Shown piece by piece: positions 6,431 through 23,335 of a DNA stretch of 52,209 nucleotides. The notes under the pieces are model-generated. The model was given only the letters and a program-made list of their open reading frames with translations, made no database searches and was not told the origin of the DNA. This stretch comes from a virus. Numbering within the stretch: the first letter of the stretch is position 1; each line of letters starts with the position of its first letter. The position numbers and the translations under genes were made by a program. The stretch lies in IMG/VR virus record IMGVR_UViG_3300025674_000062, positions 1 to 52,209 of that record, one strand, 5' to 3'.

Positions 6431-6607
6431 ATGGAAGAAAAAAGAAAGATGTTGACCGACATCCTCGGTTCGTATTATCAAAAAGGTAATGAGCACTTGT
6501 ATCATTGTCCTTATTGTAAGCACCACAAGAAGAAAATGTCTGTAAACTTTGTAAAAAGGCTACTATTTACTTTTAGACATTTCATTTATCAGGAGACACA
6601 AAAATGA
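6431..6607 (+). pseudogene. Truncated second copy of the primase N-terminal zinc-finger region
   Basis: With its own promoter and a GGAGG RBS (6421-6425), this frame encodes 58 residues. The first 40 match the start of the primase at 7705: MLTDILGS against ILNDVLGS, YHCPYCKHHKKKMSVNF against YHCPFCNHHKKKLAINF. Similarity stops after VNF, before the second Cys pair of the zinc finger, and the remaining 18 residues are unrelated. The break falls just upstream of the ACTATTTA motif and RBS of the next gene, so a late-gene cassette appears to have replaced the rest of a primase copy. The stop overlaps the next ATG (ATGA). A 58-residue half-finger is unlikely to work as a primase. Confidence 0.75.
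6562..6571 (+). promoter_or_regulatory. ACTATTTACT motif at the primase-fragment junction
   Basis: The motif lies right after the point where primase similarity ends, 32 bases before ATG 6604. An AGGAG RBS at 6591-6595 follows it. Confidence 0.45.
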
Positions 6608-6879
6608 AAATTACAAACCAACAATTAAGAAGAATTATCAAAGAAGAACTTCAAGCAACTCTACGAGAGAGCAAGGATGAAGCACTTAAAATGATTATGG
6701 ATTTAGAAAAAGGCGACGACTTGGGTATGATCCTCGATTTCAGCGATCTCAAAGAGTTGGTTTCAAATGGAGATAAAGAAGGGGCTCTTAAAGAAATCGG
6801 CTATATGTATGAAGGCACAGAAACAGCAGGCCACGATAAACTCTTGAGACGATTAGAAAGATTAATTAAAAAAATGTAA
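6604..6879 (+). CDS. Small tagged protein (putative capsid cargo)
   Basis: A 91-residue protein whose first 22 residues are the recurring tag: MKITNQQLRRIIKEEL, then residues 17-22 ending L20-R-E22, followed by Ser23. L-R-E before Ser is an exact T4 prohead-protease-type site. The mature part (about 69 residues) is acidic and helical, with segments LKMIMDLEKGDD and LLRRLERLIKKM. I see no known domain. The ATG overlaps the TGA of the primase fragment, and its RBS AGGAG lies inside that fragment. The function after release is unknown; packaging in the head is inferred from the tag. Confidence 0.7.
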   Translation: MKITNQQLRRIIKEELQATLRESKDEALKMIMDLEKGDDLGMILDFSDLKELVSNGDKEGALKEIGYMYEGTETAGHDKLLRRLERLIKKM

Positions 6880-6922
6880 TATAAAAAACTTATCTTTTTT
6901 TATCCTTTTTTATCTTTTAGAG

Positions 6923-6932
6923 ACTATTTAAA
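6923..6932 (+). promoter_or_regulatory. ACTATTTAAA motif, candidate late promoter element
   Basis: The motif ends 15 bases before ATG 6948 and is followed by AAGGAG. Confidence 0.4.
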
Positions 6933-6947
6933 GTAAAAGGAGTTATC

Positions 6948-7121
6948 ATGTCTAATTTAAAAAATCTCAAAATCAACGAAGAGACCCACGAGAAGTTAAA
7001 GAACTATTGTAAAGAAAAGGGTTTGAAAGTTGGAAAGTTTGTTGAGAACTTGATTAACTCCAAGTTAGCGGAGGATAGTCAAAATGAACTCGGGAATTTA
7101 CAAAATAACAAACAAGATTAA
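6948..7121 (+). CDS. Small ribbon-helix-helix-like protein
   Basis: A 57-residue protein, MSNLKNLKINEETHEKLKNY followed by CKEKGLKVGKFVENLINSKL and a short polar tail. The pattern of a short strand (LKIN), a helix beginning EETHEKLKNYC, a turn with Gly, and a second helix (VGKFVENLINSKL) is that of ribbon-helix-helix DNA-binding proteins. It has a good RBS (AAGGAG) and overlaps the downstream homing endonuclease by 38 bases in another frame, so the two probably move or are regulated together. It may be a repressor or a nucleoid-type factor; that is inference. Confidence 0.6.
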   Translation: MSNLKNLKINEETHEKLKNYCKEKGLKVGKFVENLINSKLAEDSQNELGNLQNNKQD

Positions 7122-7647
7122 TGGAAAGTTTTATATTGGATCTTCAAATAATATTGAGAGAAGGTGGCGACACCACAAGTCAAACTTGAGAAGCGGAACT
7201 CATACCAATGTTCATCTTCAAAATTCTTACGACAAGCACGGCGAAGATCAATTTGAGTTTGTATTGATTGAGGAAGTAAGAAGAGCTAACTTACTTGTGA
7301 AAGAGCAAGAGTATCTTGACGAAGCCTTTGGTGGAGATCAAGAAATCTACAACATCAGTAGAGTAGCCGGCTCTCCTATGGCTGGATTAAATCATACAGA
7401 GGAAGTCAAGCAACTTCTATCTGAAAAACTGTCTGGTGAAAACCACCCACATTACGGAAAGCCCGTGAGTGAAGAGTGGCGAAGAAAGATAAGCAAATCA
7501 AATAAAAGATTTACGGACGAAGAAGAAGCGACATTTAGAAAAAGATGGTTAGCTGGAGAAACCAAAGGATCAATTGCAAAAGAAATTGGAGTCCATACAA
7601 CAACGATAACAAGGGCAATTGAAAGGGCGGAAAGATTTAATTACTAA
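7084..7647 (+). CDS. Free-standing GIY-YIG homing endonuclease (Seg-like)
   Basis: A 187-residue protein. The nuclease domain is N-terminal: GIY at residues 4-6, YIG at 17-19, the Arg cluster IERRWRHH at 24-31 with the likely catalytic Arg, and Glu in KEQEYLDEAFG for metal binding. A NUMOD3-like DNA-binding stretch follows (GENHPHYGKPVSEEWRRKIS), then a C-terminal helix-turn-helix (GSIAKEIGVHTTTITRAIE). Proteins of this type cut intergenic or coding targets in related phages lacking them and spread by repair. It sits between a broken and an intact primase start, as expected if its cut-and-repair activity rearranged this locus. RBS AGCGGAGG. Confidence 0.9.
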   Translation: MNSGIYKITNKINGKFYIGSSNNIERRWRHHKSNLRSGTHTNVHLQNSYDKHGEDQFEFVLIEEVRRANLLVKEQEYLDEAFGGDQEIYNISRVAGSPMAGLNHTEEVKQLLSEKLSGENHPHYGKPVSEEWRRKISKSNKRFTDEEEATFRKRWLAGETKGSIAKEIGVHTTTITRAIERAERFNY

Positions 7648-7654
7648 TTTTTCA

Positions 7655-8677: not shown

Positions 8678-8971
8678 ATGAAATTAACAAACGCACAACT
8701 AAAACAAATCATCAAAGAAGAACTAAGCAAAGTTCTTAATGAACAAGATGGTGATTTGGAACAACTAGAAACAAGTCTTAAAGGCATGGGCTTTAATGTT
8801 GTAAATAACAGAACATCTCTAATGACTGATAATATTGAGATTGAATCAACTCCAGAGGGATTCAATATAATAGACCTTGATTATCCTGATCAGTCTAGAG
8901 AAATCAGCAAGTCTGTCGAAAAAGCTATAGAAGACATAAAAGACATAGTTAGACACAGAGGTGCTAACTAA
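8678..8971 (+). CDS. Small tagged protein (putative capsid cargo)
   Basis: A 97-residue protein with the tag MKLTNAQLKQIIKEEL, ending L20-N-E22 before Gln23. The remainder (LEQLETSLKGMGFNVVNNRT, then alternating polar and hydrophobic segments including NIEIESTPEGFNIIDLDYPD) looks like a small alpha/beta fold with no known family. It stands alone between the primase and the recombination gene and has its own ACTATTTATT motif and RBS, while its neighbours use sigma70-type promoters. This suggests late expression of an inserted cargo gene within an early or middle region. Confidence 0.7.
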   Translation: MKLTNAQLKQIIKEELSKVLNEQDGDLEQLETSLKGMGFNVVNNRTSLMTDNIEIESTPEGFNIIDLDYPDQSREISKSVEKAIEDIKDIVRHRGAN

Positions 8972-9043: not shown

Positions 9044-12000
9044 ATGATTAAGAAACCATTACGCATCTGTCACTTCGCTGACACCCACATCCGGAACCTA
9101 AAATTCCACGACGAATACAGATTTGTATTTAATCAAATTTATAAAAAACTATTATCACAAAAACCAGATTATATAATTCATTGTGGGGATCTGGCTCACA
9201 CCAAAACTCAATTGTCGCCAGAGTACTTTGCTCTGGCTTCTGAGTTCTTAAAGAACTTAGCTGACATTGCACCAACTTACATTATTCTTGGAAACCATGA
9301 CGGTAATCTAAAGAATTCTGATAGGGAAGATGCTGTGTCTCCCATAGTAAATGCCCTAAACCATCCACAATTGCATTTGCTAAAGAACTCTGGGCGTGTA
9401 TCACCACAACCTGGCTTGTCCCTAAATGTCCTGTCAATCTTTGACAGAGACGGTTGGATGCGTCCAAAGACCGGAGACATTAACATTGCTCTTTATCATG
9501 GTGCTGTTATGGGATCAAGAACAGGCTCAGGCTGGGCTATGGAACACGGAGACGATGACATAAGCATTTTCAAAGATCATGACTTTGTTATGCTTGGAGA
9601 TATTCACAAGCCACAAATCTTAGACACAGAAGGTCGTGTCCAATATGCTGGTTCCACAATTCAGCAAAACTTCTCAGAAGATGGACGCAAAGGCTACAAA
9701 CTATGGAACATAAGATCCAAAGATGATTTTGATTGTCAGCATGTAATCTTCACAAATCCTCGACCATTTGTCACAGTAGACCTAGACCAAAAGGGTGGCA
9801 TACCTCAACACATTCATGTGCCTCACGGTTGTCGTCTAAGATTAATCTCAACAACAAATTTAGATAGTGCTACAATCCGCAAGGTTACCGATTTAGCGCG
9901 TTCTAAATACAATCCGGTGTCTTTGACCTTTCTAAACAAAGGAACATCTCAATTCACAACCTCGGGCGGAGAAGAGCATAAGATGGAGAACATGCGTGAT
10001 GCTTCCATCCAAGAACAATACATTAGAGATTATTTAAAGGATTATGACTTAGAAGAAGACTTGATGTGTCAAGTGTTGGATCTCAATACTAAATACAATA
10101 TAGAGGTTGAGAAAAGTGAAGAAGTCAGAAGAAATGTCAAATGGAATATTAAAGAGATGGAGTTCTCGAATCTATTTAATTATGGACAAGACAATAGGTT
10201 GGATTTTGATAGCCTTTCTGGAACTGTTGGCATTTTTGGGAAGAACTACAGTGGGAAGTCTTCTGTTATTGATTCTGCTCTTTATGGCATTTTTGGCAGA
10301 ACCAGCAAGGCCGAAAAGAAAAACGTTCACCTCGTCAATCAAAACAAAGACAAAGCCTCTATCAGAATGGTTGTGGAAGCAGATGGTCAAGAGTATCAAA
10401 TTACTCGCAATCTTAATAAATCTAGCAAGACCGTCAAAGGAAAGTCCGTCGCTACTGCCTCTGGTGATCTTGATTTCCATAATCTCACTACCAATTCTTC
10501 TTGCAACGGGGATTCTGTAAAAGATACCGAAGCTAACATAAGAAAGATCTTTGGCGACATTGAAGACTTTATGATAACTTCTATGGCTTCTCAAATGGAT
10601 TCTCTTTCTTTTATTAACGAAGGTTCAACCAAGCGTAAGAATACACTTGCGAAGTTTCTTGATTTGGACATTTTTGAACAAAAACTTAACTTTGCCAAGA
10701 AAGATTCCTCTGAGATTTCAGCGCTGATAAAACGTCTCAAGAATAAAAAGCTTGGAGAATTGTTGGTTGCAAAGCAAGAAGAAGTCGAGGAGATCAATGA
10801 TGATATTGATCAACAAACAGATCTTTGTAAAAAGCATACCAATCGTTATGAAGAATTGCTAAAAGAATTAGCAGACATAGAGCAAGAAATCAACTCTATT
10901 CCTCAACAAATTATTGACATTGATGAGTTAGAAGATGAGATCGATAGACTTGATGTCGAGATACATAAGGCTGGTGTTAAGGTTTCCGGAAATAAAACCA
11001 CTATAAAAGAAAACATTTTAGCAATTGAACAAGCAGAAGCTATTGTAAGCTCCATAAATGAACATAGGCTTGCGCAAATAATAGAGCAGTGTAATGACTT
11101 CGAGAAGTCTCTAAAAGCTTCTGAAAAGGAACTACAGGCTCTCAAAACAAAAGAAAAGCAGTCTATCAAAAAGATCAACATGCTTCATGACCATGAGTAT
11201 GATCCTAACTGTGAATACTGTTCTAATAACAAGTTTGTAAAAGATGCTACCAAAGCCAAAGATTATCTTCCAACTCTTGAGGAAGAAATTGAGGAGGTTG
11301 AAAAGATTATTGATGGTTGGAAGCTAAAGATCTTTGGGTTGGACAAAGAATCAGCTGAAAAAGATCTTCGAATTCTTGATGAGAATATAAGCAAAAGGGA
11401 CAAGTTTGTACAAATAAACAAAAACTTAGAGATTACAAATGAGTCTATTGTTTCAAAAATTTCTTTGATGGGTAACCAGAAAGCTTCTCTCGAACAACAA
11501 CGAGACGAGTATAATGCCAATAGGCAAGCAATTGAGAACCTATCTTCTCTTGTTAAAACCAAGAATGCTGTGAAGACTAAAATGAATGAAGCAAAAGGTC
11601 GCAAAGAAAGATGCGATAAAAAGATTCAGGATTTGTTAGTTGAGCTTGGAGCTGTTAAAAGTACCATCAAGCGTCTTAATGTTGAAAAACGAGAGCAGGA
11701 TGAATTGGAAGAATCTTTCATAGCTTATGAATTGTTTATGCGTTGCATGCATCCAAATGGAATTGCTTATGAGATTATCAAACAAAAACTATCTCTTATT
11801 AACGAGGAAATACAAAAGTGTCTTGCAAACATTGTTGACTTCCAAGTTATGTTCGAGGAAGATGGTCGCAATCTAGATATCAATATAAAGCATCCAAAGT
11901 ATGACTCTCGACCTATCTCAATGGGATCAGGCGCAGAGAAGACCATAGCAGCTATGGCCATTCGTCTTGCTCTTATCGAGATAACCAATTTGCCTAAATC

Positions 12001-12196
12001 TACGCTGTTTATCATGGATGAACCGGCAACGGCATTAGACCAAGAGCATATGGAGGGCTTTGTAAGACTAATTGATATGATAAAAGACAAGTTCAAAACA
12101 GTGCTATTGATCTCTCACCTTGATGTTCTAAAAGACTGTGTTGATAAAACGATAGACATACAGAAAGTTGGCGGTTATGCAAAAGTAAACTGCTAA
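9044..12196 (+). CDS. Fused Mre11-Rad50-type (gp47-gp46/SbcD-SbcC) recombination nuclease
   Basis: One 1050-residue chain carrying both halves of the end-processing complex. Residues ~1-350 are an Mre11/SbcD/gp47 metallophosphatase: D13-x-H15, GD at 48-49, GNHD at 83-86, H152 and GDIH at 185-188. Residues ~365-1050 are a Rad50/SbcC/gp46 ATPase: Walker A (GKNYSGKS, 399-406), long coiled coils, a zinc-hook CEYC at 723-726, signature MGSGAEKT near 960 and Walker B FIMDEPATALD near 987. It would resect DNA ends for recombination-dependent replication. In T4 these are two genes. The frame is uninterrupted, the start has ACGGAGG, and a terminator follows the stop. Confidence 0.92.
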   Translation: MIKKPLRICHFADTHIRNLKFHDEYRFVFNQIYKKLLSQKPDYIIHCGDLAHTKTQLSPEYFALASEFLKNLADIAPTYIILGNHDGNLKNSDREDAVSPIVNALNHPQLHLLKNSGRVSPQPGLSLNVLSIFDRDGWMRPKTGDINIALYHGAVMGSRTGSGWAMEHGDDDISIFKDHDFVMLGDIHKPQILDTEGRVQYAGSTIQQNFSEDGRKGYKLWNIRSKDDFDCQHVIFTNPRPFVTVDLDQKGGIPQHIHVPHGCRLRLISTTNLDSATIRKVTDLARSKYNPVSLTFLNKGTSQFTTSGGEEHKMENMRDASIQEQYIRDYLKDYDLEEDLMCQVLDLNTKYNIEVEKSEEVRRNVKWNIKEMEFSNLFNYGQDNRLDFDSLSGTVGIFGKNYSGKSSVIDSALYGIFGRTSKAEKKNVHLVNQNKDKASIRMVVEADGQEYQITRNLNKSSKTVKGKSVATASGDLDFHNLTTNSSCNGDSVKDTEANIRKIFGDIEDFMITSMASQMDSLSFINEGSTKRKNTLAKFLDLDIFEQKLNFAKKDSSEISALIKRLKNKKLGELLVAKQEEVEEINDDIDQQTDLCKKHTNRYEELLKELADIEQEINSIPQQIIDIDELEDEIDRLDVEIHKAGVKVSGNKTTIKENILAIEQAEAIVSSINEHRLAQIIEQCNDFEKSLKASEKELQALKTKEKQSIKKINMLHDHEYDPNCEYCSNNKFVKDATKAKDYLPTLEEEIEEVEKIIDGWKLKIFGLDKESAEKDLRILDENISKRDKFVQINKNLEITNESIVSKISLMGNQKASLEQQRDEYNANRQAIENLSSLVKTKNAVKTKMNEAKGRKERCDKKIQDLLVELGAVKSTIKRLNVEKREQDELEESFIAYELFMRCMHPNGIAYEIIKQKLSLINEEIQKCLANIVDFQVMFEEDGRNLDINIKHPKYDSRPISMGSGAEKTIAAMAIRLALIEITNLPKSTLFIMDEPATALDQEHMEGFVRLIDMIKDKFKTVLLISHLDVLKDCVDKTIDIQKVGGYAKVNC

Positions 12197-12205
12197 ATCT
12201 CTTTC

Positions 12206-12246: not shown

Positions 12247-12258
12247 TTGGAGATAACA

Positions 12259-12537: not shown

Positions 12538-12539
12538 TT

Positions 12540-12875
12540 ATGTTCTGGGTGAATAAAGCAAGAAGATGGATAATAGCTCATAAGAACTGGTTGGTTCTTA
12601 TGGGTCTGTTTGTTTTATCTTATGTTCTCGGAAAGAAAGCTAATAAGAACTATCTTGAAATGGCCAAGCTTGCCAAAGATCAATACAAAAAAGAAAACGA
12701 AGAAATTCAACGCCTACAAAAAGAAAAGCAAGTCAGAGATAAAAAAGCAGATGAAAAATCCAAAGCAGTTAAAGCTGCCCTTGAAGCTGAAAAACAAAGA
12801 AAGTTAGATGAATTACAAAATAAAAACGCTAATATCGACGATGTTTTTCAAGACATTGGAATAAAGAAAAAATGA
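12540..12875 (+). CDS. Spanin-like protein: membrane anchor plus coiled coil
   Basis: A 111-residue protein starting MFWVNKARRWIIAHKNW. One membrane segment (about residues 19-36, LVLMGLFVLSYVLGKK) is followed by a long Lys/Glu coiled coil to about residue 95. This is the shape of an inner-membrane spanin (Rz type) or of other phage membrane coiled-coil proteins. An ATG at 12519 is in frame, but it lies inside the upstream gene and lacks a good RBS. ATG 12540 has GGAG eight bases upstream and follows the previous stop by two bases. The stop overlaps the next gene (ATGA). Confidence 0.55.
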   Translation: MFWVNKARRWIIAHKNWLVLMGLFVLSYVLGKKANKNYLEMAKLAKDQYKKENEEIQRLQKEKQVRDKKADEKSKAVKAALEAEKQRKLDELQNKNANIDDVFQDIGIKKK

Positions 12876-13312
12876 AAATAACCAACAAACAATTGAAACA
12901 AATTATTAAAGAAGAATTATCTTACATTCTTAATGAACAAGAAGATAGAATTCAAAAACTTGCTCGTTATATACGAAATGGAGATACAGAAGATTTAATT
13001 CACGGTTTGGAATTAATTGAGGCTGCTGGGTTGGAACCATGGCACAGAGCTGATCTTTATCAGGCAATAAAGCAACATGTAGACCCGATAAAAGAAGAGA
13101 TGAAATCACTAAGTATGAAAATTTATGAGTTACGAGAACAGCTTTGGGGCCGGATACAGACACAACGACCACCTAATCATCTTGAACAGAAATTAAATGA
13201 AGCAGAACAAAAATATGAAGAATTAAAATTTGAACTGAGACAAATTGAACCAGTTCTTTCTAAATTTAAAACTAATTCTATGGTTTATGTTGATGATCCT
13301 ACAATGGAGTAA
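12872..13312 (+). CDS. Tagged helical protein (putative capsid cargo)
   Basis: A 146-residue protein with the tag MKITNKQLKQIIKEEL, ending L20-N-E22 before Gln23. A second possible cleavage site is L48-I-E50 before Ala51. The body is largely helical with a coiled-coil-like middle (residues ~75-135, PIKEEMKSLSMKIYELREQL and EQKYEELKFELRQ). No known domain was recognised. Its ATG overlaps the TGA of the spanin-like gene and it is followed after 3 bases by another envelope-type gene, so a head-cargo gene sits within a lysis-type cluster. Confidence 0.65.
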   Translation: MKITNKQLKQIIKEELSYILNEQEDRIQKLARYIRNGDTEDLIHGLELIEAAGLEPWHRADLYQAIKQHVDPIKEEMKSLSMKIYELREQLWGRIQTQRPPNHLEQKLNEAEQKYEELKFELRQIEPVLSKFKTNSMVYVDDPTME

Positions 13313-13315
13313 CAA

Positions 13316-13711
13316 ATGATTTTACTATTACTTTCAACACTTGCTTGGGGACAAGTTCCCGAGTACACACAAATAGAGCAAGGTGAGCCTGCTCCATTCT
13401 CCGGTCGCCTCTTCAATGAGGAGGCATCGCAACTTATTGCTGATCAATTAGCAAATTGTGTTGAGAAGTGTCAAATTGAAATGGACTATCAGCTTGGCTT
13501 AGCTCTCGCAAGGAAAGAAGAAGAATTAACACAAATAAAATCTCAACACAAGTATGATAAAGAAATTCTTCAACTTAAAGTAGAAGCACAGCAAGAAAGA
13601 ATTCAAGAACTTGAAAAGCTAAAAACACCACCAAAAAGACAACTTTGGTTCACGTTAGGACTAATTAGTGGAGTAGGAATTACAATTTCAATAGCAAAGG
13701 CGGTAAAATAA
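13316..13711 (+). CDS. Exported coiled-coil protein with C-terminal membrane anchor (spanin-like)
   Basis: A 131-residue protein. The N-terminus MILLLLSTLAWG is a short signal-peptide-like segment, with likely cleavage before QVPEYTQ. The middle (residues ~60-110) is a charged coiled coil and the C-terminus has a hydrophobic segment, LWFTLGLISGVGITISIA, ending in Lys. I recall similar proteins in marine T4-like phages without an assigned role. The signal peptide, periplasmic coiled coil and membrane anchor near a second coiled-coil membrane protein fit a spanin-type disruptor of the outer membrane. No lipobox Cys is seen. It ends TAATG with the next gene. Confidence 0.55.
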   Translation: MILLLLSTLAWGQVPEYTQIEQGEPAPFSGRLFNEEASQLIADQLANCVEKCQIEMDYQLGLALARKEEELTQIKSQHKYDKEILQLKVEAQQERIQELEKLKTPPKRQLWFTLGLISGVGITISIAKAVK

Positions 13712-14847
13712 TGAAAATAACAAAACAAGATATCAAAAGAATGATCAAGGAAGAACTAAAAAAAGTTCTCTTAGAAGATATAAGTCCAGTACCAAATATG
13801 AATCCAAGAGACGCTCTTCAGTTTATGAGAGAAGAACTAGAAGGCAAAACGCTTATCTTTTGGGATTTAGAAACAATCTCGGGAATGACAAAAGAAAAGT
13901 ACTTACCACCAGAGTTACAAGAAAGAACTTACTCTGGACAAATAACACAAATTGGTGCGACAGCATATGAAATCGAATCTTTAGATGATGACCCAGCACA
14001 AGCTTTAGTTGGAGAACCATTTGAAAGAAAAGTGATCCTCACCCCTGATACTTTAATGCAACAAGCTTTTGAGAGAGAGCAATTGAAAGACCCTGAATCT
14101 TCTTTTAGCAGATTAGCAGCCCGTCAGCCAGATGCTCCAATAACAGTTGATAAAACACTTCAATTTACACACCATAGTGATCTAGATCTTGAAGACGTTG
14201 ATGAAGCAGATGCTTTGATTGAATATTTTAATTGGCTTGATTCTTTTGATAATAAGGTTTTGTTAGGTCACAACATAATCACATTTGATAATCAATTTCT
14301 TAAGAAAAGAGTTGAGTACTTAGCTGAGACTTTAGAAGACAAACAAAAAGTTGCTCAATTAGTCTCTGGTTACGATTCGTTTTATGATAATGACTTTTTC
14401 GACACTTTAAAGTTTACACGTTATTTGTTTAAGCAAGTTATCACTATGCTTAACTCATATGAAGACCCAATAGCAGCTCAATTCTTTGATCCTGAAACAA
14501 ATCAGAAAAAAATTCAACAAGGAATTACACAAAAATTTACAAGTAAATTATCAAGACTTATGCAAGTTTATGCAAAAGACGCAATTCAATTACATACTGC
14601 TGCTGATGATACGAGACAGTTGGTTAATGTTTTCTTTAAAATGTATCAAACAATAAAAACAGCACAACAAAATCCAGATTATGCTCGTCAGATGGCTTCA
14701 CCGCATCACACTAATCCTATTAAAGCTGCTAAGCAATTGTTCCCAGACGATTTAGAAAAACAAAAATCTGTAAGGGATTTGGCACCAGATGAGATTAGCA
14801 GAATGTTAAAAAGAAAAATTAAATTTCCAGAAGACTGGGAGGTTTAA
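13711..14847 (+). CDS. Tagged DnaQ-type 3'-5' exonuclease (DexA-like), putative capsid cargo
   Basis: A 378-residue protein. The tag is MKITKQDIKRMIKEEL, ending L20-L-E22 before Asp23. From about residue 47 comes an RNase T/DnaQ fold: Exo I IFWDLETISG (D52, E54), Exo II LLGHNIITFDNQFL near 183-197, FFDTLKFTRYLF, and Exo III HTAADDTRQL near 295 giving the HxxxxD motif. It resembles the T4 DexA exonuclease in type but has the extra N-terminal leader. If the leader directs packaging, the nuclease would enter the host with the DNA. Expression is coupled to the upstream gene by TAATG overlap. Confidence 0.85.
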   Translation: MKITKQDIKRMIKEELKKVLLEDISPVPNMNPRDALQFMREELEGKTLIFWDLETISGMTKEKYLPPELQERTYSGQITQIGATAYEIESLDDDPAQALVGEPFERKVILTPDTLMQQAFEREQLKDPESSFSRLAARQPDAPITVDKTLQFTHHSDLDLEDVDEADALIEYFNWLDSFDNKVLLGHNIITFDNQFLKKRVEYLAETLEDKQKVAQLVSGYDSFYDNDFFDTLKFTRYLFKQVITMLNSYEDPIAAQFFDPETNQKKIQQGITQKFTSKLSRLMQVYAKDAIQLHTAADDTRQLVNVFFKMYQTIKTAQQNPDYARQMASPHHTNPIKAAKQLFPDDLEKQKSVRDLAPDEISRMLKRKIKFPEDWEV

Positions 14848-15858: not shown

Positions 15859-16413
15859 ATGAGCAACACAACATTAGAAATTATACAAGGACTTTCACAA
15901 GCAGCAGCTAATGCTTACGATGGCGCACATGATGAAAAATATTCTTACGACGGTCAAGCTCGCACAATGGGTTTGAAAAGAGAAGAAGGTTGTCCAATTA
16001 TGGACAAAAGAGTTATGGACGGCTTCAAAGTTCGCTTCTATGGTGACTCAATGATTCTTTCTTACCAAGCCGAGGTTATGCTTAAAGAAGTTTATGGTGG
16101 GAGATTTGAACAAGATATTGAATCAATGATGAATGATATCAAGAAATTCTTGCAAAAAGAATACAGAGCAGTTACAGGAAAGTCAGTGACCCTTACAGCT
16201 AAAGGTGAGCCTAATATCCTTGTTCAATCAACATCAAGAATTCGTAATTGGGTTGAGGCACAACAACACTTCAAGATTGGCGGAATTGAATCCTTGCCTA
16301 TTCTTGAGCCTTCAATAGACCAAACAAGAGACGTAACAAGAAAGTTCTTAGAACAATTTTCGGACAAACGCCCACAAAACGATACACGCAAAAAAGGAGC
16401 AAATCAAAAATGA
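15859..16413 (+). CDS. Conserved phage protein upstream of terminase
   Basis: A 184-residue protein beginning MSNTTLEIIQGLSQAAANAY and containing REEGCPIMDKRVMDGFKVRF, an alternating strand pattern, and SRIRNWVEAQQHFKIGG. I recognise this as a conserved protein of marine T4-like phages near terminase and portal, but know no function. It has no tag, membrane segment or catalytic motif. The C-terminus is basic and polar. RBS AAGGAG is before ATG 15859, and its stop overlaps the next tagged gene (ATGA). Confidence 0.65.
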   Translation: MSNTTLEIIQGLSQAAANAYDGAHDEKYSYDGQARTMGLKREEGCPIMDKRVMDGFKVRFYGDSMILSYQAEVMLKEVYGGRFEQDIESMMNDIKKFLQKEYRAVTGKSVTLTAKGEPNILVQSTSRIRNWVEAQQHFKIGGIESLPILEPSIDQTRDVTRKFLEQFSDKRPQNDTRKKGANQK

Positions 16414-16730
16414 AAATCACAAATGAACAATTAAAGCAAATTATTAAAGAAGAATTAGAAACAGTCCTCAATGAAGAAAGACAAGCTTTTGTTTTTTTTG
16501 ATCCATCTGGAAACATAGAACTTCAAAATGTTAGCATTGACGATAGTCAAAATTGGAATATTCCTGTTCATTATTTTGATCAACAAAGCTACAGGACTCT
16601 ATTGTCATTGAAAGGGAAACCATTAGGCCAAGAAGGTGCTCAATATTTCTTCAACATGATAAAAAGACTTAATGCTAAACCTGATAAATTGAACGTTGAA
16701 AAATTAGCAAGAGCAAAGGTCACCAGCTAG
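16410..16730 (+). CDS. Small tagged protein (putative capsid cargo)
   Basis: A 106-residue protein with the tag MKITNEQLKQIIKEEL, ending L20-N-E22 before Glu23. The mature part begins near RQAFVFFDPSGNIELQNVSI and looks like a compact alpha/beta domain, with a helix around YRTLLSLKGKPLGQEGAQYF. No known family was recognised. It is inserted directly between the conserved 15859 gene (ATGA overlap) and the terminase, 12 bases downstream. Confidence 0.65.
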   Translation: MKITNEQLKQIIKEELETVLNEERQAFVFFDPSGNIELQNVSIDDSQNWNIPVHYFDQQSYRTLLSLKGKPLGQEGAQYFFNMIKRLNAKPDKLNVEKLARAKVTS

Positions 16731-16742: not shown

Positions 16743-18329
16743 ATGTCTCTAAAACTTTCAAAGCAAGAAATAATAAAAGAAATCCTTAAGTGTGGAAAAG
16801 ATCCTCTCTACTTTATTAATAACTATTGTAGGATCTCTCACCCACTTAAGGGTTTAATTCCTTTTAATACCTATCCTTATCAAGATGAATTGGTTAAGGA
16901 TTTTAACGACTATCGCTTTACCGTCATTCTCAAAGCAAGACAGTTAGGTATTTCCACAATCTCTGCTGCTTATGCTGTATGGTTTATGTTGTTTCATAAA
17001 GAAAAGAACATCTTGGTAATGGCAACCAAGTTCAATACAGCAGCCAACTTGGTAAAGAAAGTAAAAATGGTAATGAAAAACATTCCTCCGTGGATGGCAA
17101 TTGCCGACATTACGATAGATAACAGAACCTCGTTCGAACTTTCAAATGGCTCCACAATCAAAGCTGTTGGAACATCAGCAGACGCTGGTCGTTCGGAAGC
17201 CCTATCTTTGCTTATTATAGACGAGGCAGCGCACGTTGAAGGACTTGAAGAGCTTTGGGCAGGTCTTTACCCCACTCTATCAACAGGGGGTCGTTGTATC
17301 GCATTATCAACGCCTATGGGGGTTGGAAACTGGTTTCACAGAACTTATGTGGATGCCGAGAATGGAGATAATGAATTTCACCCTGTATCCTTACCTTGGG
17401 ATGTTCACCCTGAACGTGATCAGGCATGGTTCGCAAAAGAAACCAAGAACATGTCGAGAAGACAAATAGCACAGGAGCTTGAATGTAATTTCAACACATC
17501 TGGTGAAACTGTTATTCATCCGGATGACATTGCTTGGCTATTGGAACAACAACAAGAACCTGAGTACAAAACAGGATGGGATAGAAACTTGTGGATTTGG
17601 GAAAAGTATCAAGAAGGTGTTCCTTATCTTATGGTAGCAGACGTTGCTCGAGGAGACGGAGCTGACTCTTCTGTATTTCACATTCTGAGAACGGATACAA
17701 TGGATGTAGTTGCTGAATACCAAGGAAAACCAACGATGGATCATTTTGCTCAGATTCTAAATGATGCTGGGAAAGAATATGGCAACTGCCTTATAGTCAT
17801 CGAGAATGTTGGCATTGGTATTGCTGCTTGTGAGAAAGTAAGAGATCTTGGATATCCAAACCTTTATTATTCAATCAAATCAACACATGAATATGTTGAT
17901 TCTCTTGAAGGAGAATATAATGACAGAGCAGTTATAGGATTCACAACATCTGTCAAAACAAGGCCTCTGATTGTTGCCAAGCTCGAAGAATATGTAAGAA
18001 ATAAGCTGGTAAGACCAAAGTCAAGTCGGTTGTTTCACGAAGTAAAAACATTTATTTGGAACAACGGAAAACCACAAGCAATGCGATCTTATCATGACGA
18101 CTTGATAATGGCTCTCGCAATTGCGTGTTGGGTTAGAGATACGGCTTTGGAAGTCTCGGAGAAAGATAAGTTGTATCAAGAAGCAATGATTTCTTCTATC
18201 AAATCATCACAAACCACAATGAACACAGCTATCAAAGGAATGAGAGGATACACTGGGACAAAGACACAAGAGTCACTAGAAGAGTTTCAGAAGACATACA
18301 AAGACTTTGCTTGGATTTTCAGAGGATAG
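16743..18329 (+). CDS. Terminase large subunit (gp17-like)
   Basis: A 528-residue DNA-packaging motor. ATPase domain: Walker A variant ARQLGIS at residues 65-71 (the T4-type ARQLGxS loop), Walker B LLIIDEAAH at 156-164 with catalytic Glu, and coupling motif near LSTPMG (188-193). RNase H-fold nuclease domain: ADVARGDGADSS at 299-310 with the first catalytic Asp, further acidic residues near VIENVGIG, and a final YHDDLIMALAIA. It cuts the concatemer and pumps DNA into the prohead through the portal encoded next. No separate small subunit was recognised upstream. Confidence 0.95.
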   Translation: MSLKLSKQEIIKEILKCGKDPLYFINNYCRISHPLKGLIPFNTYPYQDELVKDFNDYRFTVILKARQLGISTISAAYAVWFMLFHKEKNILVMATKFNTAANLVKKVKMVMKNIPPWMAIADITIDNRTSFELSNGSTIKAVGTSADAGRSEALSLLIIDEAAHVEGLEELWAGLYPTLSTGGRCIALSTPMGVGNWFHRTYVDAENGDNEFHPVSLPWDVHPERDQAWFAKETKNMSRRQIAQELECNFNTSGETVIHPDDIAWLLEQQQEPEYKTGWDRNLWIWEKYQEGVPYLMVADVARGDGADSSVFHILRTDTMDVVAEYQGKPTMDHFAQILNDAGKEYGNCLIVIENVGIGIAACEKVRDLGYPNLYYSIKSTHEYVDSLEGEYNDRAVIGFTTSVKTRPLIVAKLEEYVRNKLVRPKSSRLFHEVKTFIWNNGKPQAMRSYHDDLIMALAIACWVRDTALEVSEKDKLYQEAMISSIKSSQTTMNTAIKGMRGYTGTKTQESLEEFQKTYKDFAWIFRG

Positions 18330-18330
18330 C

Positions 18331-18359
18331 TTGACATTCGATTTACTTTATGTTATAAT
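18331..18359 (+). promoter_or_regulatory. Sigma70-type promoter, TTGACA-17-TATAAT, upstream of portal
   Basis: TTGACA is at 18331-18336 and TATAAT at 18354-18359, with TG upstream of the -10. An ACTATTTA motif follows 4 bases later, so the portal gene may have two overlapping promoters. Confidence 0.75.
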
Positions 18360-18362
18360 AGA

Positions 18363-18372
18363 ACTATTTACT
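18363..18372 (+). promoter_or_regulatory. ACTATTTACT motif, candidate late promoter element for portal
   Basis: The motif ends 16 bases before ATG 18389, and AAAGGA follows. Confidence 0.4.
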
Positions 18373-18388
18373 ACGAAAAGGAATAGCT

Positions 18389-20356
18389 ATGCCCAAATAT
18401 AAAAAGTCGCCTTATAATCCTCAGTCGGATCTATTTAAGGCTCTTACAAAATTGTTTTCTGGTCCGATTACCCAGAGAAGAACACAAACAGGTCGTCAAC
18501 TAAGAAGACGACAATTAGATAATTATGCAACAAAGTTTCAATCAGCTACTGGTGCTCAATTTAAGAAGTGGGAATACAATCCCATAAACTCTGTTACTCT
18601 TAACATGATCTCAAACAGAAACAGAGCAGAGCGCTATGTTGATTTTGATGAAATGGAATATATGCCAGAGATCGCATCTTCATTAGATATTTATGCAGAT
18701 GAGATGACAACTCACACAGCACTTCGTCCGATGCTTAACATTAAATGTGCGAACGAAGAAATAAAACACATCCTCCATAATTTATATCACAATGTTCTTA
18801 ACATTGAACACAACCTATTTGGATGGGCAAGAACAATGTGCAAGTACGGTGATTTCTTTCTTTATCTTGATATTGATGAAGATATGGGAATTCGATCTGC
18901 TATTGGTCTTCCAACCAGAGAGATCGAGCGTCTTGAGGGCGAGGACCAAAGTAATCCTAATTACGTTCAATACCAGTGGAACACAGCTGGACTAACTCTG
19001 GAGAATTGGCAAGTTGCTCACTTCAGAATCCTTGGTAATGATAAGCATGCTCCTTATGGAACGTCGGTCCTCGAACCTTGTAGACGCATTCACCGTCAAC
19101 TTATTCTTTTAGAAGATGCTATGATGGCTTATAGAATTGTACGTGCTCCTGAACGTCGGTTGTTCAAAATTGACGTTGGTGGTATTCCACCGCAAGAAGT
19201 TGAACAGTACATGCAAAAAGTTATGTCACAATTAAAAAGACACTCAGTTGTAGATCCAAATACAGGTCGTGTCGATCTACGTTATAACCCTTTATCAATT
19301 GAAGAAGATTATTATATTCCAATACGTGGAGGACAATCTTCAACAGATATCACAAGTCTTCCCGGTGCAGCTTATAATGGCGGTATTGATGATGTTAAGT
19401 ATCTCAGAGATAAATTGTTTGCTGCTTTGAAGATACCTCAGTCTTATTTGACCATGGGCGAAGGTGCTTCTGAAGACAAAACCACATTAGCTCAAAAAGA
19501 TATTAGATTTGCAAGAACAATACAAAGATTACAAAGAGTTGCAATTGCTGAATTAGAAAAGATTGGAATAATACATCTCTACACGATGGGATACAGAAAT
19601 GATGATCTATTAGCTTTCACACTTCAACTAAACAATCCGTCTAAGATTGCTGAGTTGCAAGAACTTGAACATTGGGACAAAAAGTTTTCTGTTGCTGGAA
19701 ATGCAACAGAAGGATACTTCTCAAAACGCTGGATTGCGGAACACCTTTTCGGAATGTCTGAGGATGAGTTTCTTCGTAACCAAAGAGAAATGTTCTTTGA
19801 TAAAAAATTCGCAGCAAAACTTGAAGCTGCTACTGCTGGTGGAGAAGCTAGTGAAGACGCCGGTGGTGGTGGCGGACTTTCTGGTGGACTTGGCGACCTC
19901 GGTGGTGGAGGTGACCTTGGTGGAGGTGAAGATTTAGGAGGTGACCTTGGCGGTGACCTTGGCGGTGGAGACACCGGTGGAGGAGATGTCGGCGGCGACG
20001 AAGGGGGTGATACCGATCTGCTCGCCGAACCCTCTGCGAAACGTGATGATTCACCTTCATATGTTGATATTCCAAGAAAGGTTGGATTTAACAATCCCGA
20101 CACAAGACGAGGTCCATACAAAAGGCACCAATCTTCTTATGATAAAGGCGGTATGAAAAAGTCTATGCTCGGCTCCACAGGAATTGAGGCAGCAAGATCT
20201 ACAGGTCGTAACATTTATAAAGGCTATGTTGGAAATGAATTTTCTGTTTCCCAAGCAGCTGGTGGCTATTTAGAAGAAGAACAAAAACTAGAAACAGTAT
20301 CTCGCGAAGTCGAGATGCTTATTGAATCATTAAACAAAAAGGAATCAATAGAATGA
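18389..20356 (+). CDS. Portal protein (gp20-like)
   Basis: A 655-residue dodecameric portal through which DNA is packaged. Typical gp20 features are AERYVDFDEMEYMPEIASSLDIYADE near residues 70-95, FKIDVGGIPPQEVEQYMQKVM, and LFAALKIPQSYLTMGEGASEDKTTLAQKDIRFARTI. The C-terminal part (about residues 490-550) is an unusual low-complexity stretch of Gly and Asp repeats (GGDLGGG units), followed by a normal polar tail with YVDIPRK and a helical end. This linker is absent in T4 as far as I know. The stop overlaps a tagged gene (ATGA). Confidence 0.92.
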   Translation: MPKYKKSPYNPQSDLFKALTKLFSGPITQRRTQTGRQLRRRQLDNYATKFQSATGAQFKKWEYNPINSVTLNMISNRNRAERYVDFDEMEYMPEIASSLDIYADEMTTHTALRPMLNIKCANEEIKHILHNLYHNVLNIEHNLFGWARTMCKYGDFFLYLDIDEDMGIRSAIGLPTREIERLEGEDQSNPNYVQYQWNTAGLTLENWQVAHFRILGNDKHAPYGTSVLEPCRRIHRQLILLEDAMMAYRIVRAPERRLFKIDVGGIPPQEVEQYMQKVMSQLKRHSVVDPNTGRVDLRYNPLSIEEDYYIPIRGGQSSTDITSLPGAAYNGGIDDVKYLRDKLFAALKIPQSYLTMGEGASEDKTTLAQKDIRFARTIQRLQRVAIAELEKIGIIHLYTMGYRNDDLLAFTLQLNNPSKIAELQELEHWDKKFSVAGNATEGYFSKRWIAEHLFGMSEDEFLRNQREMFFDKKFAAKLEAATAGGEASEDAGGGGGLSGGLGDLGGGGDLGGGEDLGGDLGGDLGGGDTGGGDVGGDEGGDTDLLAEPSAKRDDSPSYVDIPRKVGFNNPDTRRGPYKRHQSSYDKGGMKKSMLGSTGIEAARSTGRNIYKGYVGNEFSVSQAAGGYLEEEQKLETVSREVEMLIESLNKKESIE

Positions 20357-20718
20357 AAATAACAAACAAACAACTAAAACAAATAATAAAAGAAGAACTT
20401 GATAATACACTTCAAGAAATGCAAGTGGGCTTAGGGCTTCCTCATGAATTTACAGATGAGGAATTAATCCAACACGCATCTGAATTTCTGAATACAGTTT
20501 ATGTTCCAGAAAGAACCGGAAGGATTTGGAGCAACGAGGATAATATAAAAGCTTTAGGATTATATAAGATTTTAGGAAACAGGGTGAGAGAAGCAGGTGT
20601 TTTCAATAATGATCCGACTGATGCAGATAAAGATGCGGCAAAAAGAAAACAGTGGGAACTTAGACGGTTACGTAGCGAACTACAGAATATTATATCCCGA
20701 GAGTTTTTAGATATTTAA
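20353..20718 (+). CDS. Tagged protein (putative capsid cargo)
   Basis: A 121-residue protein with the tag MKITNKQLKQIIKEEL, ending L20-Q-E22 before Met23. The mature part is helical and charged (FTDEELIQHASEFLNTVYVP, then ALGLYKILGNRVREAGVFNN and a final WELRRLRSELQNIISREF). I do not recognise a family. It lies exactly between the portal gene and the conserved 20732 gene. In T4 the corresponding position holds the small prohead core genes 67 and 68, so a core or internal protein is a reasonable inference. Confidence 0.65.
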   Translation: MKITNKQLKQIIKEELDNTLQEMQVGLGLPHEFTDEELIQHASEFLNTVYVPERTGRIWSNEDNIKALGLYKILGNRVREAGVFNNDPTDADKDAAKRKQWELRRLRSELQNIISREFLDI

Positions 20719-20731
20719 CAAGGAGAAGCAA

Positions 20732-21526
20732 ATGAAACATAATAAGAAAAGAAATACCGCTTTTCTTTACGAATGCCTAATCAAAGAAATGACCAAGGCC
20801 GTTGTAAGAGGAGAGCTCAAAAAGAAACAACAAATTGTTGAGACGCTTAAAAGATTTTTCTCAAAAGGAAAACCTCTTTACAACGATCTCCAATTGTACA
20901 AACAACTAATGGAACCTCAAAAGCTTGAGGAATCTCTTGGACTTCGTTATATGAAAGAAGTAAAAGAAGACTGGGAAGCTTTAGATAGAAAAGAAATCTT
21001 TAACGAGCAAACCAATCTAATCAAAGAATTCAATCAAAATCTTCCAGAGGCATTTGGAAACTTTATTCCTAACTATAAATCAATTGCAACCGTGGGCCAA
21101 TATTTCCATTCTAGTGGCCTTAAAGCAAAGACTCGCCTATTGATAGAGGAAAAGGTAAAAGGACTTGTTATTTCGCATCCTCAAGCGATTAAAGAGGATA
21201 AAATGAAGCCTCTTGACAACCTTACATACAATACATTCGTTTCTAAATTTAATGACACATATAAAGAAACTTTGCTAAAAGAACAAAGAGAATTGTTGAC
21301 CAATTTCATTACGTCATTCTCCGACAATGGTTTAGGGCTCAAGATGTTCATGAACGAAGAGCTTGGAAGATTGAAAGAAGAATGCGATCAACTTAGTGAA
21401 GGCAAGTGGGCCGATAAGATAAAACTAATTAAAGAAAAGATTGAAGGGTTTAAAACAAAACCTTTAACCGAGGAAGTTGTGAAAGATGTGTTTCATATTC
21501 AACAATTATTAGCGGAGATCAAATAA
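20732..21526 (+). CDS. Conserved phage protein of the head region
   Basis: A 264-residue, Lys/Glu-rich helical protein beginning MKHNKKRNTAFLYECLIKEM. I recall this N-terminal phrase from conserved proteins next to portal genes in marine T4-like phages; the function is unknown to me. The C-terminal half contains FITSFSDNGLGLKMFMNEEL and a long coiled-coil-like helix. It has no tag and no membrane segment. RBS AAGGAG. The next gene starts directly at its stop. A role in head assembly is inferred from position. Confidence 0.65.
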   Translation: MKHNKKRNTAFLYECLIKEMTKAVVRGELKKKQQIVETLKRFFSKGKPLYNDLQLYKQLMEPQKLEESLGLRYMKEVKEDWEALDRKEIFNEQTNLIKEFNQNLPEAFGNFIPNYKSIATVGQYFHSSGLKAKTRLLIEEKVKGLVISHPQAIKEDKMKPLDNLTYNTFVSKFNDTYKETLLKEQRELLTNFITSFSDNGLGLKMFMNEELGRLKEECDQLSEGKWADKIKLIKEKIEGFKTKPLTEEVVKDVFHIQQLLAEIK

Positions 21527-22210: not shown

Positions 22211-22217
22211 GAGTCTA

Positions 22218-22532
22218 ATGCTTAACTTTATACTCGCCGCTTATGGCTTGACTTTCATTCTTATTCACGGCAAGATCTTTGAAGACATCCGACCACCAAA
22301 AGATTACACAAAGAAATGGAACACACTTTTCCACTGCCCTTTGTGTATGGGCTTCTGGGTTGGTTGTTTTTTATTTTGCATTAACCGTTGGACAGAACTA
22401 TTTACATTTGATTACACAACCGCCAATTTCTTTATTTGCGGTTGGATTTCTGCTGGAACATCATATCTGATTTCTATGTTGGTTGATGACTTCGGCTTTC
22501 GCATTTCAAAAATTGGAGATAAAGATGAATAA
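22218..22532 (+). CDS. Small membrane protein with CPLC motif (DUF1360-like)
   Basis: A 104-residue integral membrane protein. An N-terminal segment (LNFILAAYGLTFILIHG) is followed by a polar loop with FHCPLCMGFWVGCFLF, and then a third hydrophobic region (FFICGWISAGTSYLISML). The HCPLCxGFW motif at the start of a membrane segment resembles the DUF1360 family found in phages and bacteria, of unknown function. The frame is open from 22137, but ATG 22218 has AGGAG at a proper distance and starts the hydrophobic segment. Confidence 0.6.
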   Translation: MLNFILAAYGLTFILIHGKIFEDIRPPKDYTKKWNTLFHCPLCMGFWVGCFLFCINRWTELFTFDYTTANFFICGWISAGTSYLISMLVDDFGFRISKIGDKDE

Positions 22533-22578
22533 AAAATGGATGCTACAACCAGTTCGTCGTTGCTGTTCAGGCAGCTGA
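22525..22578 (+). CDS. Possible 17-residue micro-protein
   Basis: The ORF encodes MNKKWMLQPVRRCCSGS. It overlaps the end of the 22218 gene and has an ideal RBS (GGAG at 22515-22518, six bases before the ATG). A GC-rich hairpin follows. It could be a real peptide, a leader peptide linked to the hairpin, or chance. Confidence 0.3.
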   Translation: MNKKWMLQPVRRCCSGS

Positions 22579-22583
22579 CTCAA

Positions 22584-22602
22584 GCGGGTTGCGCCCGCAT
22601 TT
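22584..22602 (+). terminator. GC-rich hairpin followed by TTTTA before the kinase gene
   Basis: GCGGGT/GCCCGC stem with a short loop, then ATTTTA. It may be a weak terminator or attenuator, since genes continue directly after it. Confidence 0.4.
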
Positions 22603-22615
22603 TATGGAGAAAGAA

Positions 22616-23335
22616 ATGAAAATAACAAATAAACAATTAAGACAAATCATAAAGGAAGAGCTCAATCGTGTTTTAAGAGAAAACATGGGTTTAAAAATGT
22701 TTGTCCTCGTTGGTCCACCATCTGTTGGTAAATCAACTTGGATTAATAAAACTTTTGGACAAAATAGACCTTACGTCATCAATAGAGATGATATAGTTGA
22801 AGATGTTGCCTCAGAATATGGTTGGACATATGACGACATGTTTGCAACACCACCACAGGACGCAGAAATTGGCAGTGTTGACCAAAAATACGGTGAAGTA
22901 CAGAAACCACCAAGTTGGATGACTTGGGCAAAATCAGTGTTTTCAACTGTTATGGAAGCAAATGGGAAAGTTCATAACTTGTTTACACAGAGAGTAGCAG
23001 GTGCCGTAGATAGTGGTCAAGACATTGTAGTTGATATGACTAATATGAACAAGAGAGCCAGATCTGGTGCTTTAAAAGCAATTGAAGGTTCAGAAGATCA
23101 ATATGAAAAAATTGCTGTTGTTTTTGAATCTAAAGGAGCTGAAGAATTTATTAAAGCCGTTGCTCAAAAAAGAGCTGAGGCTGCTGCAAGAATGGGTAAA
23201 TCTAAAACAATCCCTCCTGCTGTTTTTGATAGAATGTTTGCATCATTTGAAGATGTAAGTATGGATGAAGGGTTTGATGAAATAGTGAGTGTGGATAATA
23301 GACAATTACTACAACAACTAGCTAGTGAGATGTAA
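22616..23335 (+). CDS. Tagged polynucleotide-kinase-like P-loop protein, putative capsid cargo
   Basis: A 239-residue protein. The tag MKITNKQLRQIIKEEL ends L20-R-E22 before Asn23. The body is a P-loop kinase: Walker A GPPSVGKS at 33-40, INRDD at 55-59 (the Asp position used as general base in T4 polynucleotide kinase), VVDMTNMNKRAR at 138-149 and IPPAVFDRMFASFE near 199-212, all in the order seen in the T4 PseT kinase domain. No C-terminal phosphatase domain is present. It might phosphorylate 5'-OH ends of RNA or DNA. ATG 22616 is chosen over the upstream ATG at 22589 because it begins the tag and has GGAG six bases before it. Confidence 0.8.
   Translation: MKITNKQLRQIIKEELNRVLRENMGLKMFVLVGPPSVGKSTWINKTFGQNRPYVINRDDIVEDVASEYGWTYDDMFATPPQDAEIGSVDQKYGEVQKPPSWMTWAKSVFSTVMEANGKVHNLFTQRVAGAVDSGQDIVVDMTNMNKRARSGALKAIEGSEDQYEKIAVVFESKGAEEFIKAVAQKRAEAAARMGKSKTIPPAVFDRMFASFEDVSMDEGFDEIVSVDNRQLLQQLASEM

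What the first reader, a model, noticed from the sequence alone, without database searches (positions are those of the whole stretch)
6604..23335. A shared 22-residue N-terminal tag on eight unrelated proteins, predicted to be a capsid-targeting and cleavage signal
Genes at 6604, 8678, 12872, 13711, 15217, 16410, 20353 and 22616 all start with MKI/LTxxxxxxxIKEEL-type residues (often MKITNxQLxQIIKEEL) and all have Leu20-x-Glu22, while everything after residue 23 differs. The copies use different synonymous codons, so the peptide is held by selection and not by recent copying of DNA. Known: T4 packages internal proteins through short N-terminal targeting peptides cut by gp21 protease after (L/I)-x-E. 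Seen here: a gp21-like protease, and the same site repeated in scaffold and capsid. Inference: the tag is an amphipathic helix that docks cargo onto the scaffold core and is then removed, giving a modular system for delivering proteins with the genome.
Basis: partly seen in the sequence, partly recalled or inferred. Interest (0 to 1): 0.93.

Follow-up and report, generated by a model that had tools for sequence, protein, structure and literature searches.

The report
Phage N-terminal capsid-loading tag on cargo
This uncultured T4-like phage puts the same short, probably cleavable "load me into the head" tag on eight unrelated proteins, and relatives carry up to about 40 such proteins, so the genome itself appears to list which proteins a virus packs and may inject with its DNA.

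Summary
Exactly eight genes share a 22-residue N-terminus ending L20-x-E22, their bodies are unrelated, and the codons differ synonymously. A blind comparison of start regions finds these eight and nothing else; in T4 it finds the known packaged pair ipII/ipIII.

In 332 body-distinct tagged proteins, conservation collapses after residue 22. A [LIVMF]-x-E unit sits at the tag's end in 82% (17-21% in body windows), moves as a unit between registers, and is followed by A/G/S twice as often as expected. The capsid protein has an invariant L-x-E|S/A site and the scaffold is full of such sites. Tag-bearing contigs carry the gp21-type protease, except fragments that lack the head genes. The strict tag pattern is almost absent from 85,000 bacterial and archaeal species genomes.

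New here: the tag is one of at least three interchangeable N-terminal tags. Homologous bodies (79% identical in one pair) carry different tags joined at the predicted cut. One 306-kb contig has about 39 tagged genes in 32 kb. The tag resembles the N-terminus of a conserved protein encoded beside the protease.

Verdict: a T4-style capsid-targeting propeptide system, in a new and much larger form.

The parts
6604..6669 (+). Tag A, MKITNQQLRRIIKEELQATLRE, on a 91-aa unknown protein (6604-6879)
   Evidence: no Pfam or PHROG hit
8678..8743 (+). Tag A, MKLTNAQLKQIIKEELSKVLNE, on a 97-aa unknown protein (8678-8971)
12872..12937 (+). Tag A, MKITNKQLKQIIKEELSYILNE, on a 146-aa unknown protein (12872-13312)
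13711..13776 (+). Tag A, MKITKQDIKRMIKEELKKVLLE, on a 378-aa RNase_T/DEDDh-type exonuclease-like protein (13711-14847)
   Evidence: an ortholog with a different tag in L187
15217..15282 (+). Tag A, MKITNEQLRQIIKEELEAVLNE, on a 209-aa unknown protein (15217-15846)
16410..16475 (+). Tag A, MKITNEQLKQIIKEELETVLNE, on a 106-aa unknown protein (16410-16730)
20353..20418 (+). Tag A, MKITNKQLKQIIKEELDNTLQE, on a 121-aa unknown protein between portal and protease (20353-20718)
   Evidence: orthologs in L008 and L009 keep the tag
22616..22681 (+). Tag A, MKITNKQLRQIIKEELNRVLRE, on a 239-aa AAA_33 (polynucleotide-kinase-like) protein (22616-23335)
   Evidence: relatives carry tag B or C
5663..5722 (+). 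Tag-B-like N-terminus, MSNDMKVIMENWRKNLVLNE, on a 237-aa unknown protein (5663-6376): probable ninth cargo
   Evidence: sequence; tag B statistics
23337..23966 (+). gp21-type prohead protease (Peptidase_S77)
   Evidence: Pfam PF03420 E=2e-33, PHROG 207 E=4e-59
23966..24037 (+). Tag-like N-terminus (MKKQELKKILKPLIKECIKEVIFE) of a 139-aa protein found next to the protease in nearly all relatives; candidate core component
36480..37523 (+). Scaffold-like protein directly upstream of the capsid gene; 8 [LI]xE[AGS] sites against 1.45 expected
   Evidence: 0 of 500 shuffles reach 8
37542..39293 (+). Major capsid protein (Gp23)
   Evidence: Pfam PF07068 E=5e-71
37710..37718 (+). Predicted capsid maturation site L57-R58-E59|S60
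   Evidence: L57 and E59 invariant in 74 capsid proteins, residue 60 S or A in 85%
16743..18329 (+). Terminase large subunit (context)
   Evidence: Pfam PF03237 E=5e-9
18389..20356 (+). T4-type portal protein (context)
   Evidence: Pfam PF07230 E=2e-76

Best explanation
The tag is a capsid-targeting propeptide, working like the CTS of T4 internal proteins. It is an amphipathic N-terminal helix of about 20 residues that brings otherwise unrelated proteins into the prohead core. The phage's gp21-type S77 protease then cuts it after L-x-E (normally E22, probably E14 in variants with A/S/T/V15), leaving free cargo packed with the DNA and probably ejected into the next host. It is one of several exchangeable tags (A: MKITxxxLxxIIKEELxxVLxE; B: MKxLMENWRxFLxE; C: MKxLRxYIRxxLxE). 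Tag A may descend from, or mimic, the N-terminal helix of the conserved protein encoded next to the protease. Shown from sequence: the tag's modularity, the floating LxE unit, tag swaps at the cut, the matching site in the capsid protein, the scaffold's enrichment for such sites, and co-occurrence with S77. Inferred: helix, docking partner, cleavage, packaging and injection.
For: 1. Boundary: in 332 body-distinct families, information is about 1-4 bits (mostly 2-4) at residues 2-16, 0.4-0.8 at 17-22, 0.2 at 23, and 0.12 or less from 24 on. In 74 families from protease-selected loci, column 22 has 2.0 bits and column 23 has 0.5. 2. Cut motif: [LIVMF]xE with E at 17-27 in 272/332, against 57-70/332 in body windows; 68/74 against 14/74 in the protease-selected set. 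L and E covary in each main register (E22: 139 observed, 93 expected; E19: 20 against 3.5), as expected for a site rather than a helix register. 3. P1' is A/G/S in 119 of 272 (permutation mean 63, max 83 of 2000). 4. E15 tags have a downstream LxE in 228/296, non-E15 tags (mostly A/S/T/V15 after I-x-E14) in 7/36, p=2e-11. This holds inside one genome (p=0.003) and without it (p=5e-9). 5. Capsid protein L57-x-E59|S/A invariant in 74 homologs; scaffold enriched for [LI]xE[AGS]. 6. Same cargo, different tags: L008 against L074, bodies 79% identical, junction at LxE; exonuclease A/C, with L20 and E22 the only invariant tag residues; AAA_33 kinase A/B/C. 7. S77 in 15/22 long tag-selected contigs, 0/12 controls. 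The seven without it also lack Gp23; one of them ends just beyond the portal gene. 8. The blind method recovers T4 ipII/ipIII (MKTYQEFIAE|A).
Against: No virion proteome exists for any tag-A phage in the libraries searched, so packaging and cleavage are unproven. About 18% of families have no LxE at the tag's end. S77 and the tag could be linked only by descent, since all these phages belong to one T4-like group. The control contigs are few and shorter. Tag A has no sequence identity to the T4 CTS. The AlphaFold model gives the tag as a helix (residues 5-21) only at low confidence (pLDDT about 35-55). Much of the larger set was chosen by a pattern on residues 1-16, so conservation there is inflated; positions 17-22 were not selected on.
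Confidence: 0.83

Rival explanations
1. The tag is a docking helix for another phage assembly or host target (replisome, membrane, phage compartment, or the protease itself as a substrate tether) and is not a capsid address. LxE is only the end of the helix.
For: Some cargo are enzymes (AAA_33 kinase, exonuclease, GNAT) that could act in the infected cell. No virion data exist.
Against: LxE moves between registers as a unit and is followed by small residues, which helix register does not predict. The same site is invariant in the capsid protein. Tag swaps join at LxE.
Confidence: 0.1
2. The tag is removed by the protease but the tagged proteins are scaffold or core assembly components rather than delivered cargo, as T4 gp67 and gp68 are.
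For: The tag resembles the N-terminus of the conserved protease-adjacent protein. T4 IPIII also affects head assembly (PMC9026906).
Against: Cargo sets differ between close relatives, and the bodies include kinases, nucleases, acetyltransferases and transpeptidases. About 40 distinct tagged genes in one genome are too many for core parts.
Confidence: 0.05
3. The shared start is a by-product of recent duplication or recombination of gene starts (a DNA-level cassette) with no function for the peptide.
For: Cargo shuffle between genomes and tags swap, so recombination does act.
Against: Synonymous divergence among the eight copies reaches about 80% of independence. Functional columns are conserved in hundreds of unrelated bodies with a sharp end. 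Different tag sequences converge on LxE.
Confidence: 0.02

Closest known systems
Capsid targeting sequence (CTS) of T4 internal proteins IPI, IPII, IPIII and Alt (Mullaney and Black 1996; reviewed in PMC9026906)
   Same: Short N-terminal propeptide shared by unrelated small proteins, ending (L/I)-x-E before A/S/G, in a phage with an S77 gp21-type protease, Gp23 capsid and T4 portal. Tag B ends W-x-x-(F/Y)-L-x-E, close in pattern to T4 Y-Q-E-F-I-A-E.
   Different: Tag A is about 22 residues (T4 10-19) with no sequence identity to MKTYQEFIAE. There are at least three tag types, often in one genome; 8 to about 43 tagged genes per contig against three IPs plus Alt in T4; and cargo include recognisable enzymes. 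Packaging is not demonstrated.
T-even ip loci (Repoila et al. 1994, as cited in PMC12373910)
   Same: Rapidly exchanged genes recognised by a shared N-terminal signal and otherwise unrelated; at least 10 ip types known, T4 Ip1-3 being anti-restriction proteins.
   Different: A different signal, and a far larger and more diverse repertoire: 341 body clusters from the material sampled here.
P1 DarB capsid targeting sequence (PMC9024508)
   Same: An N-terminal 30-residue signal is sufficient to send a protein into the head.
   Different: P1 appears to lack a separate scaffold (PMC9024508); I did not test the DarB sequence here. In this phage the tag ends at a predicted protease site.
SPN3US and phiKZ-type giant-phage propeptides (PMC5694885)
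   Same: Prohead protease removes N-terminal propeptides, proposed to target ejected proteins.
   Different: Those propeptides are mostly longer than 100 residues (one of 20), with only limited sharing between paralogs; here one short tag is shared by unrelated proteins.

Membership tests
T4-type CTS / internal head proteins | Short N-terminal segment shared by proteins whose mature parts are unrelated | tested here: met
T4-type CTS / internal head proteins | Segment ends with a gp21-type site (L/I)-x-E followed by a small residue | tested here: met
   LxE in all eight of the window; 82% of 332 families with a floating register, A/G/S enriched twofold though not universal
T4-type CTS / internal head proteins | Genome encodes an S77 (gp21-type) prohead protease with matching sites in capsid and scaffold | tested here: met
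T4-type CTS / internal head proteins | Sequence homology to the T4 CTS MKTYQEFIAE | tested here: not met
   T4 ipII/ipIII read; tag A is unrelated in sequence. Tag B shows only a pattern resemblance (aromatic-x-x-F-L-x-E). It is therefore filed as working like a CTS, not as a homolog of the T4 CTS
T4-type CTS / internal head proteins | Segment is sufficient to package a protein in the head | not testable with these tools
   needs tag-reporter fusions
T4-type CTS / internal head proteins | Segment is removed in the mature virion | not testable with these tools
   needs N-terminal proteomics of virions; no tag-A phage appeared among 50,697 phage records except one weak metagenomic hit
T4-supergroup myovirus head module | Gp23 capsid, Gp20-type portal, S77 protease and T4-type terminase | tested here: met
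P1 DarB-type capsid targeting | Targeting peptide in a phage that appears to lack a separate scaffold | tested here: not met
   This genome has a scaffold-like gene full of [LI]xE[AGS] sites

The most novel reading that the evidence does not exclude
These phages run a large, open protein-loading system. Several different N-terminal addresses (A, B, C) feed one core and one protease, tag A being derived from the N-terminal helix of a conserved core protein beside the protease. Some members load tens of different effectors (about 40 in a 306-kb phage, in near-continuous operons), so an injected counter-defence and takeover arsenal can be read from the genome by tag alone. The different tags may be sorting codes for position or order of loading rather than equivalents.
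Probability: 0.35. Interest if true: 0.88.

Novelty: new variant of a known kind. Interest (0 to 1): 0.76.

Why it matters
The injected proteins of phages are mostly unknown and are a prime source of counter-defence and host-takeover factors; in T4 all three IPs turned out to block type IV restriction enzymes (PMC12373910). A tag that can be read from sequence turns hundreds of nameless environmental phage genes into predicted injected proteins, and makes the idea testable in one proteomics run. It would also show that the T4 CTS is one case of a general, exchangeable address system, and could give new loading tags for phage-based protein delivery in laboratory strains.

Tried and rejected
Tag in cultured phages: tblastn with consensus tags A, A-variant, B and C against 50,697 phage records gave nothing beyond one weak metagenomic hit; short queries limit sensitivity.

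T4-type late promoter TATAAATA at tagged genes: 4 in the window, 3.5 expected, not linked to the tags.

PHROG 207 on the seven S77-negative contigs: nothing found, but the control did not ring either, so it is uninformative.

Nearest cultured relative, Flavobacterium phage immuto (capsid 38% identical): no tag A, B or C found, but two pairs of different shared N-termini, MKKQILSEQFxRMQxLAGIITE|S and MENFDLKKFLVEN; no virion proteome of it was found.

First control pattern found nothing and a second was malformed; replaced.

PADLOC scan of cargo: only the DEDDh exonuclease matched.

Considered and rejected: recent duplication (codons), a conserved upstream or RNA element (upstream DNA differs between copies), chance.
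Full report
OBSERVATION. The eight genes start as described. Every copy fits MK(I/L)T(N/K)xx(L/I)(K/R)(Q/R)(I/M)IKEELxx(V/T/I)LxE with L20 and E22, and each start has its own upstream DNA. Of 441 identical-residue codon pairs, 170 use different synonymous codons, about 80% of the 212 expected from independent choice, so this is not recent copying. The bodies do not match one another (best E 0.07). A blind all-against-all comparison of 229 candidate start regions in the window returns exactly these eight genes. The same procedure on two T4 stretches returns ipII and ipIII, the known packaged pair that share MKTYQEFIAE|A, plus a pair of homologous homing endonucleases, which is a positive control.

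CONTEXT. The window is an IMG/VR virus record of 52 kb with a T4-type head module: terminase 16743, portal 18389 (Portal_T4 E=2e-76), S77 protease 23337 (E=2e-33), a scaffold-like gene 36480 and Gp23 capsid 37542 (E=5e-71). The closest annotated phages are distant: the protease of the best-covered match is 46% identical, and the closest capsid protein is 38% identical over nearly its full length.

DISTRIBUTION. Of 80 viral loci chosen only because they encode a relative of the protease, 54 carry the tag (121 copies, all on the protease strand). One of the four, a 305,838-bp contig filed under a Methylococcaceae MAG, is a jumbo phage: it has terminase, portal, S77, scaffold, capsid and sheath relatives. 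In 22 long tag-selected virus contigs S77 is present in 15, against 0 of 12 control contigs. All 7 without S77 also lack Gp23, and the largest of them (155 kb) stops about 1.7 kb beyond its portal gene, before the place of the protease. No contig tested had the capsid gene and the tag but no S77. The control set is small and its contigs are shorter.

CUT SITE. From all loci I collected 435 distinct tagged proteins in 341 body clusters. In 332 representatives the information content is about 1-4 bits (mostly 2-4) at residues 2-16, 0.4-0.8 at 17-22, 0.2 at 23, and background after. Residues 17 onward were not part of any selection pattern. A [LIVMF]xE with E at 17-27 occurs in 272 of 332, against 57-70 in equal windows of the bodies. 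E is mostly at 22 (131) or 21 (69), then 18 and 19. Within the main registers L and E occur together more often than their columns predict (E22 139 against 93; E21 69 against 50; E19 20 against 3.5), so the LxE unit is selected as such and slides along the helix. The next residue is A, G or S in 119 cases, with a permutation mean of 63 and maximum of 83. Tags with E15 have a downstream LxE in 228 of 296. Tags without E15 (mostly A, V, T, S after I-x-E14) have one in 7 of 36 (p=2e-11). The relation holds within the single jumbo contig (p=0.003) and without it (p=5e-9). The simplest reading is that I-x-E14 is itself cuttable when a small residue follows, and that E15 moves the cut to E22. The motif L/I-x-E is the published gp21 specificity (PMC9026906). 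In the capsid protein L57-x-E59 is invariant in 74 homologs and followed by S or A in 85%. The scaffold has eight [LI]xE[AGS] sites against 1.45 expected (0 of 500 shuffles), while portal, terminase and sheath show no excess.

TAGS ARE EXCHANGEABLE. Two further N-terminal tags occur in the same phages: B, M(K/R)xL(M/I)ENWRx(F/Y)LxE, where 42 of 43 families end in a hydrophobic-x-E, and C, MKxLRxYIRxxLxE, 15 of 22 families. Bodies move between tags. L008:9415 (tag A) and L074:7802 (tag B) are 79% identical over 167 residues right after the LxE. An exonuclease family has tag A in five genomes and tag C in L187, and the only invariant residues in its first 24 are L20 and E22. AAA_33 kinases carry A, B or C, while relatives of the kinase in other phages match only the body, from about residue 17-31 on. 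Eleven body clusters carry more than one tag type, though a few are joined by short or repetitive matches. The jumbo contig has about 39 tagged genes between 182 and 214 kb: 18 consecutive A genes, a block of C genes, then six more A genes.

POSSIBLE ORIGIN. The gene after the protease (23966) is present next to it in nearly all relatives and starts M(N/K)KxELKKxLKPLIKECIKEVIFE|(E/D)G; in L216 it reads MKKSELKNIIKECVKEVIFE. Scored with a tag-A profile, the top of 1,916 other start regions consists almost only of diverged tags and this protein. I infer that it is a core component whose N-terminal helix is the model or source of tag A. This is a similarity result, not proof of homology or binding.

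CARGO. Of 100 body-distinct tagged proteins most are unknown; recognised ones include AAA_33 kinase, RNase_T/DEDDh exonuclease, GNAT acetyltransferase, YkuD transpeptidase, pentapeptide repeats, zeta-toxin-like and tRNA-ligase-CPD domains. T4 Ip1-3 each block a particular type IV restriction enzyme (PMC12373910), so counter-defence is a fair guess for some, but only that.

MECHANISM AND STATUS. Most likely the tag helix binds the prohead core, cargo is enclosed when the capsid shell forms, S77 cuts after LxE during maturation, the tag leaves, and the cargo stays with the DNA and is ejected. Shown: the sequence statistics above. Supported weakly: helix 5-21 in an AlphaFold model of low confidence. 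Inferred from T4 (PMC9026906, PMC3012670): docking, cutting, packaging, ejection.

NOVELTY. The kind is known (T4 CTS, T-even ip loci, P1 DarB, giant-phage propeptides). Fifteen open-access papers since 2000 use the phrase "capsid targeting sequence"; judging by titles, abstracts and the ones I read, none describes this. New are the tag sequences, the coexistence and exchange of tags, the size of the repertoire, the E15 switch and the link to the core protein.

Noticed in passing
G026:C5 (305,838 bp; L255-L270) 182-214 kb: A near-continuous array of about 39 genes that all begin with tag A or C (one with a related variant), on a jumbo-phage contig filed under a Methylococcaceae MAG (NHDW01000006.1).
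   Followed up: partly
window 23966-24385; L216: Conserved protein beside the protease with a tag-like N-terminus; in L216 almost identical to tag A.
   Followed up: partly
L371:1315, L371:8272, L373:25061, L373:1803 (Flavobacterium phage immuto): Two pairs of otherwise different genes in the nearest cultured relative share N-termini MKKQILSEQFxRMQxLAGIITES or MENFDLKKFLVEN: possibly further tag types in a phage that can be grown.
   Followed up: partly
window 7084-7647: GIY-YIG-like homing endonuclease reading frame between tagged genes (judged from the sequence).
   Followed up: no
window 24609-36415: About 12 kb of repetitive fibre- or adhesin-like genes sits between the protease-adjacent gene and the scaffold, where T4 has genes 21-22-23 adjacent (T4 order).
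   Followed up: no
L372 (LR756508, 484-kb uncultured phage) 10340-21494: Cluster of about ten genes starting with tag-A-like helices (e.g. MKIQEQKLRGIIKEEIKKIVNE).
   Followed up: partly
window 23337-23966: The protease has internal sites LSE|S at 22, IQE|G at 31 and IAE|G at 191, possible self-cleavage points; the C-terminal one is not conserved in most relatives.
   Followed up: partly
window 9044-12196: 1050-aa reading frame that looks like a fused SbcD/SbcC (gp47/gp46-type) nuclease, judged from the sequence.
   Followed up: no
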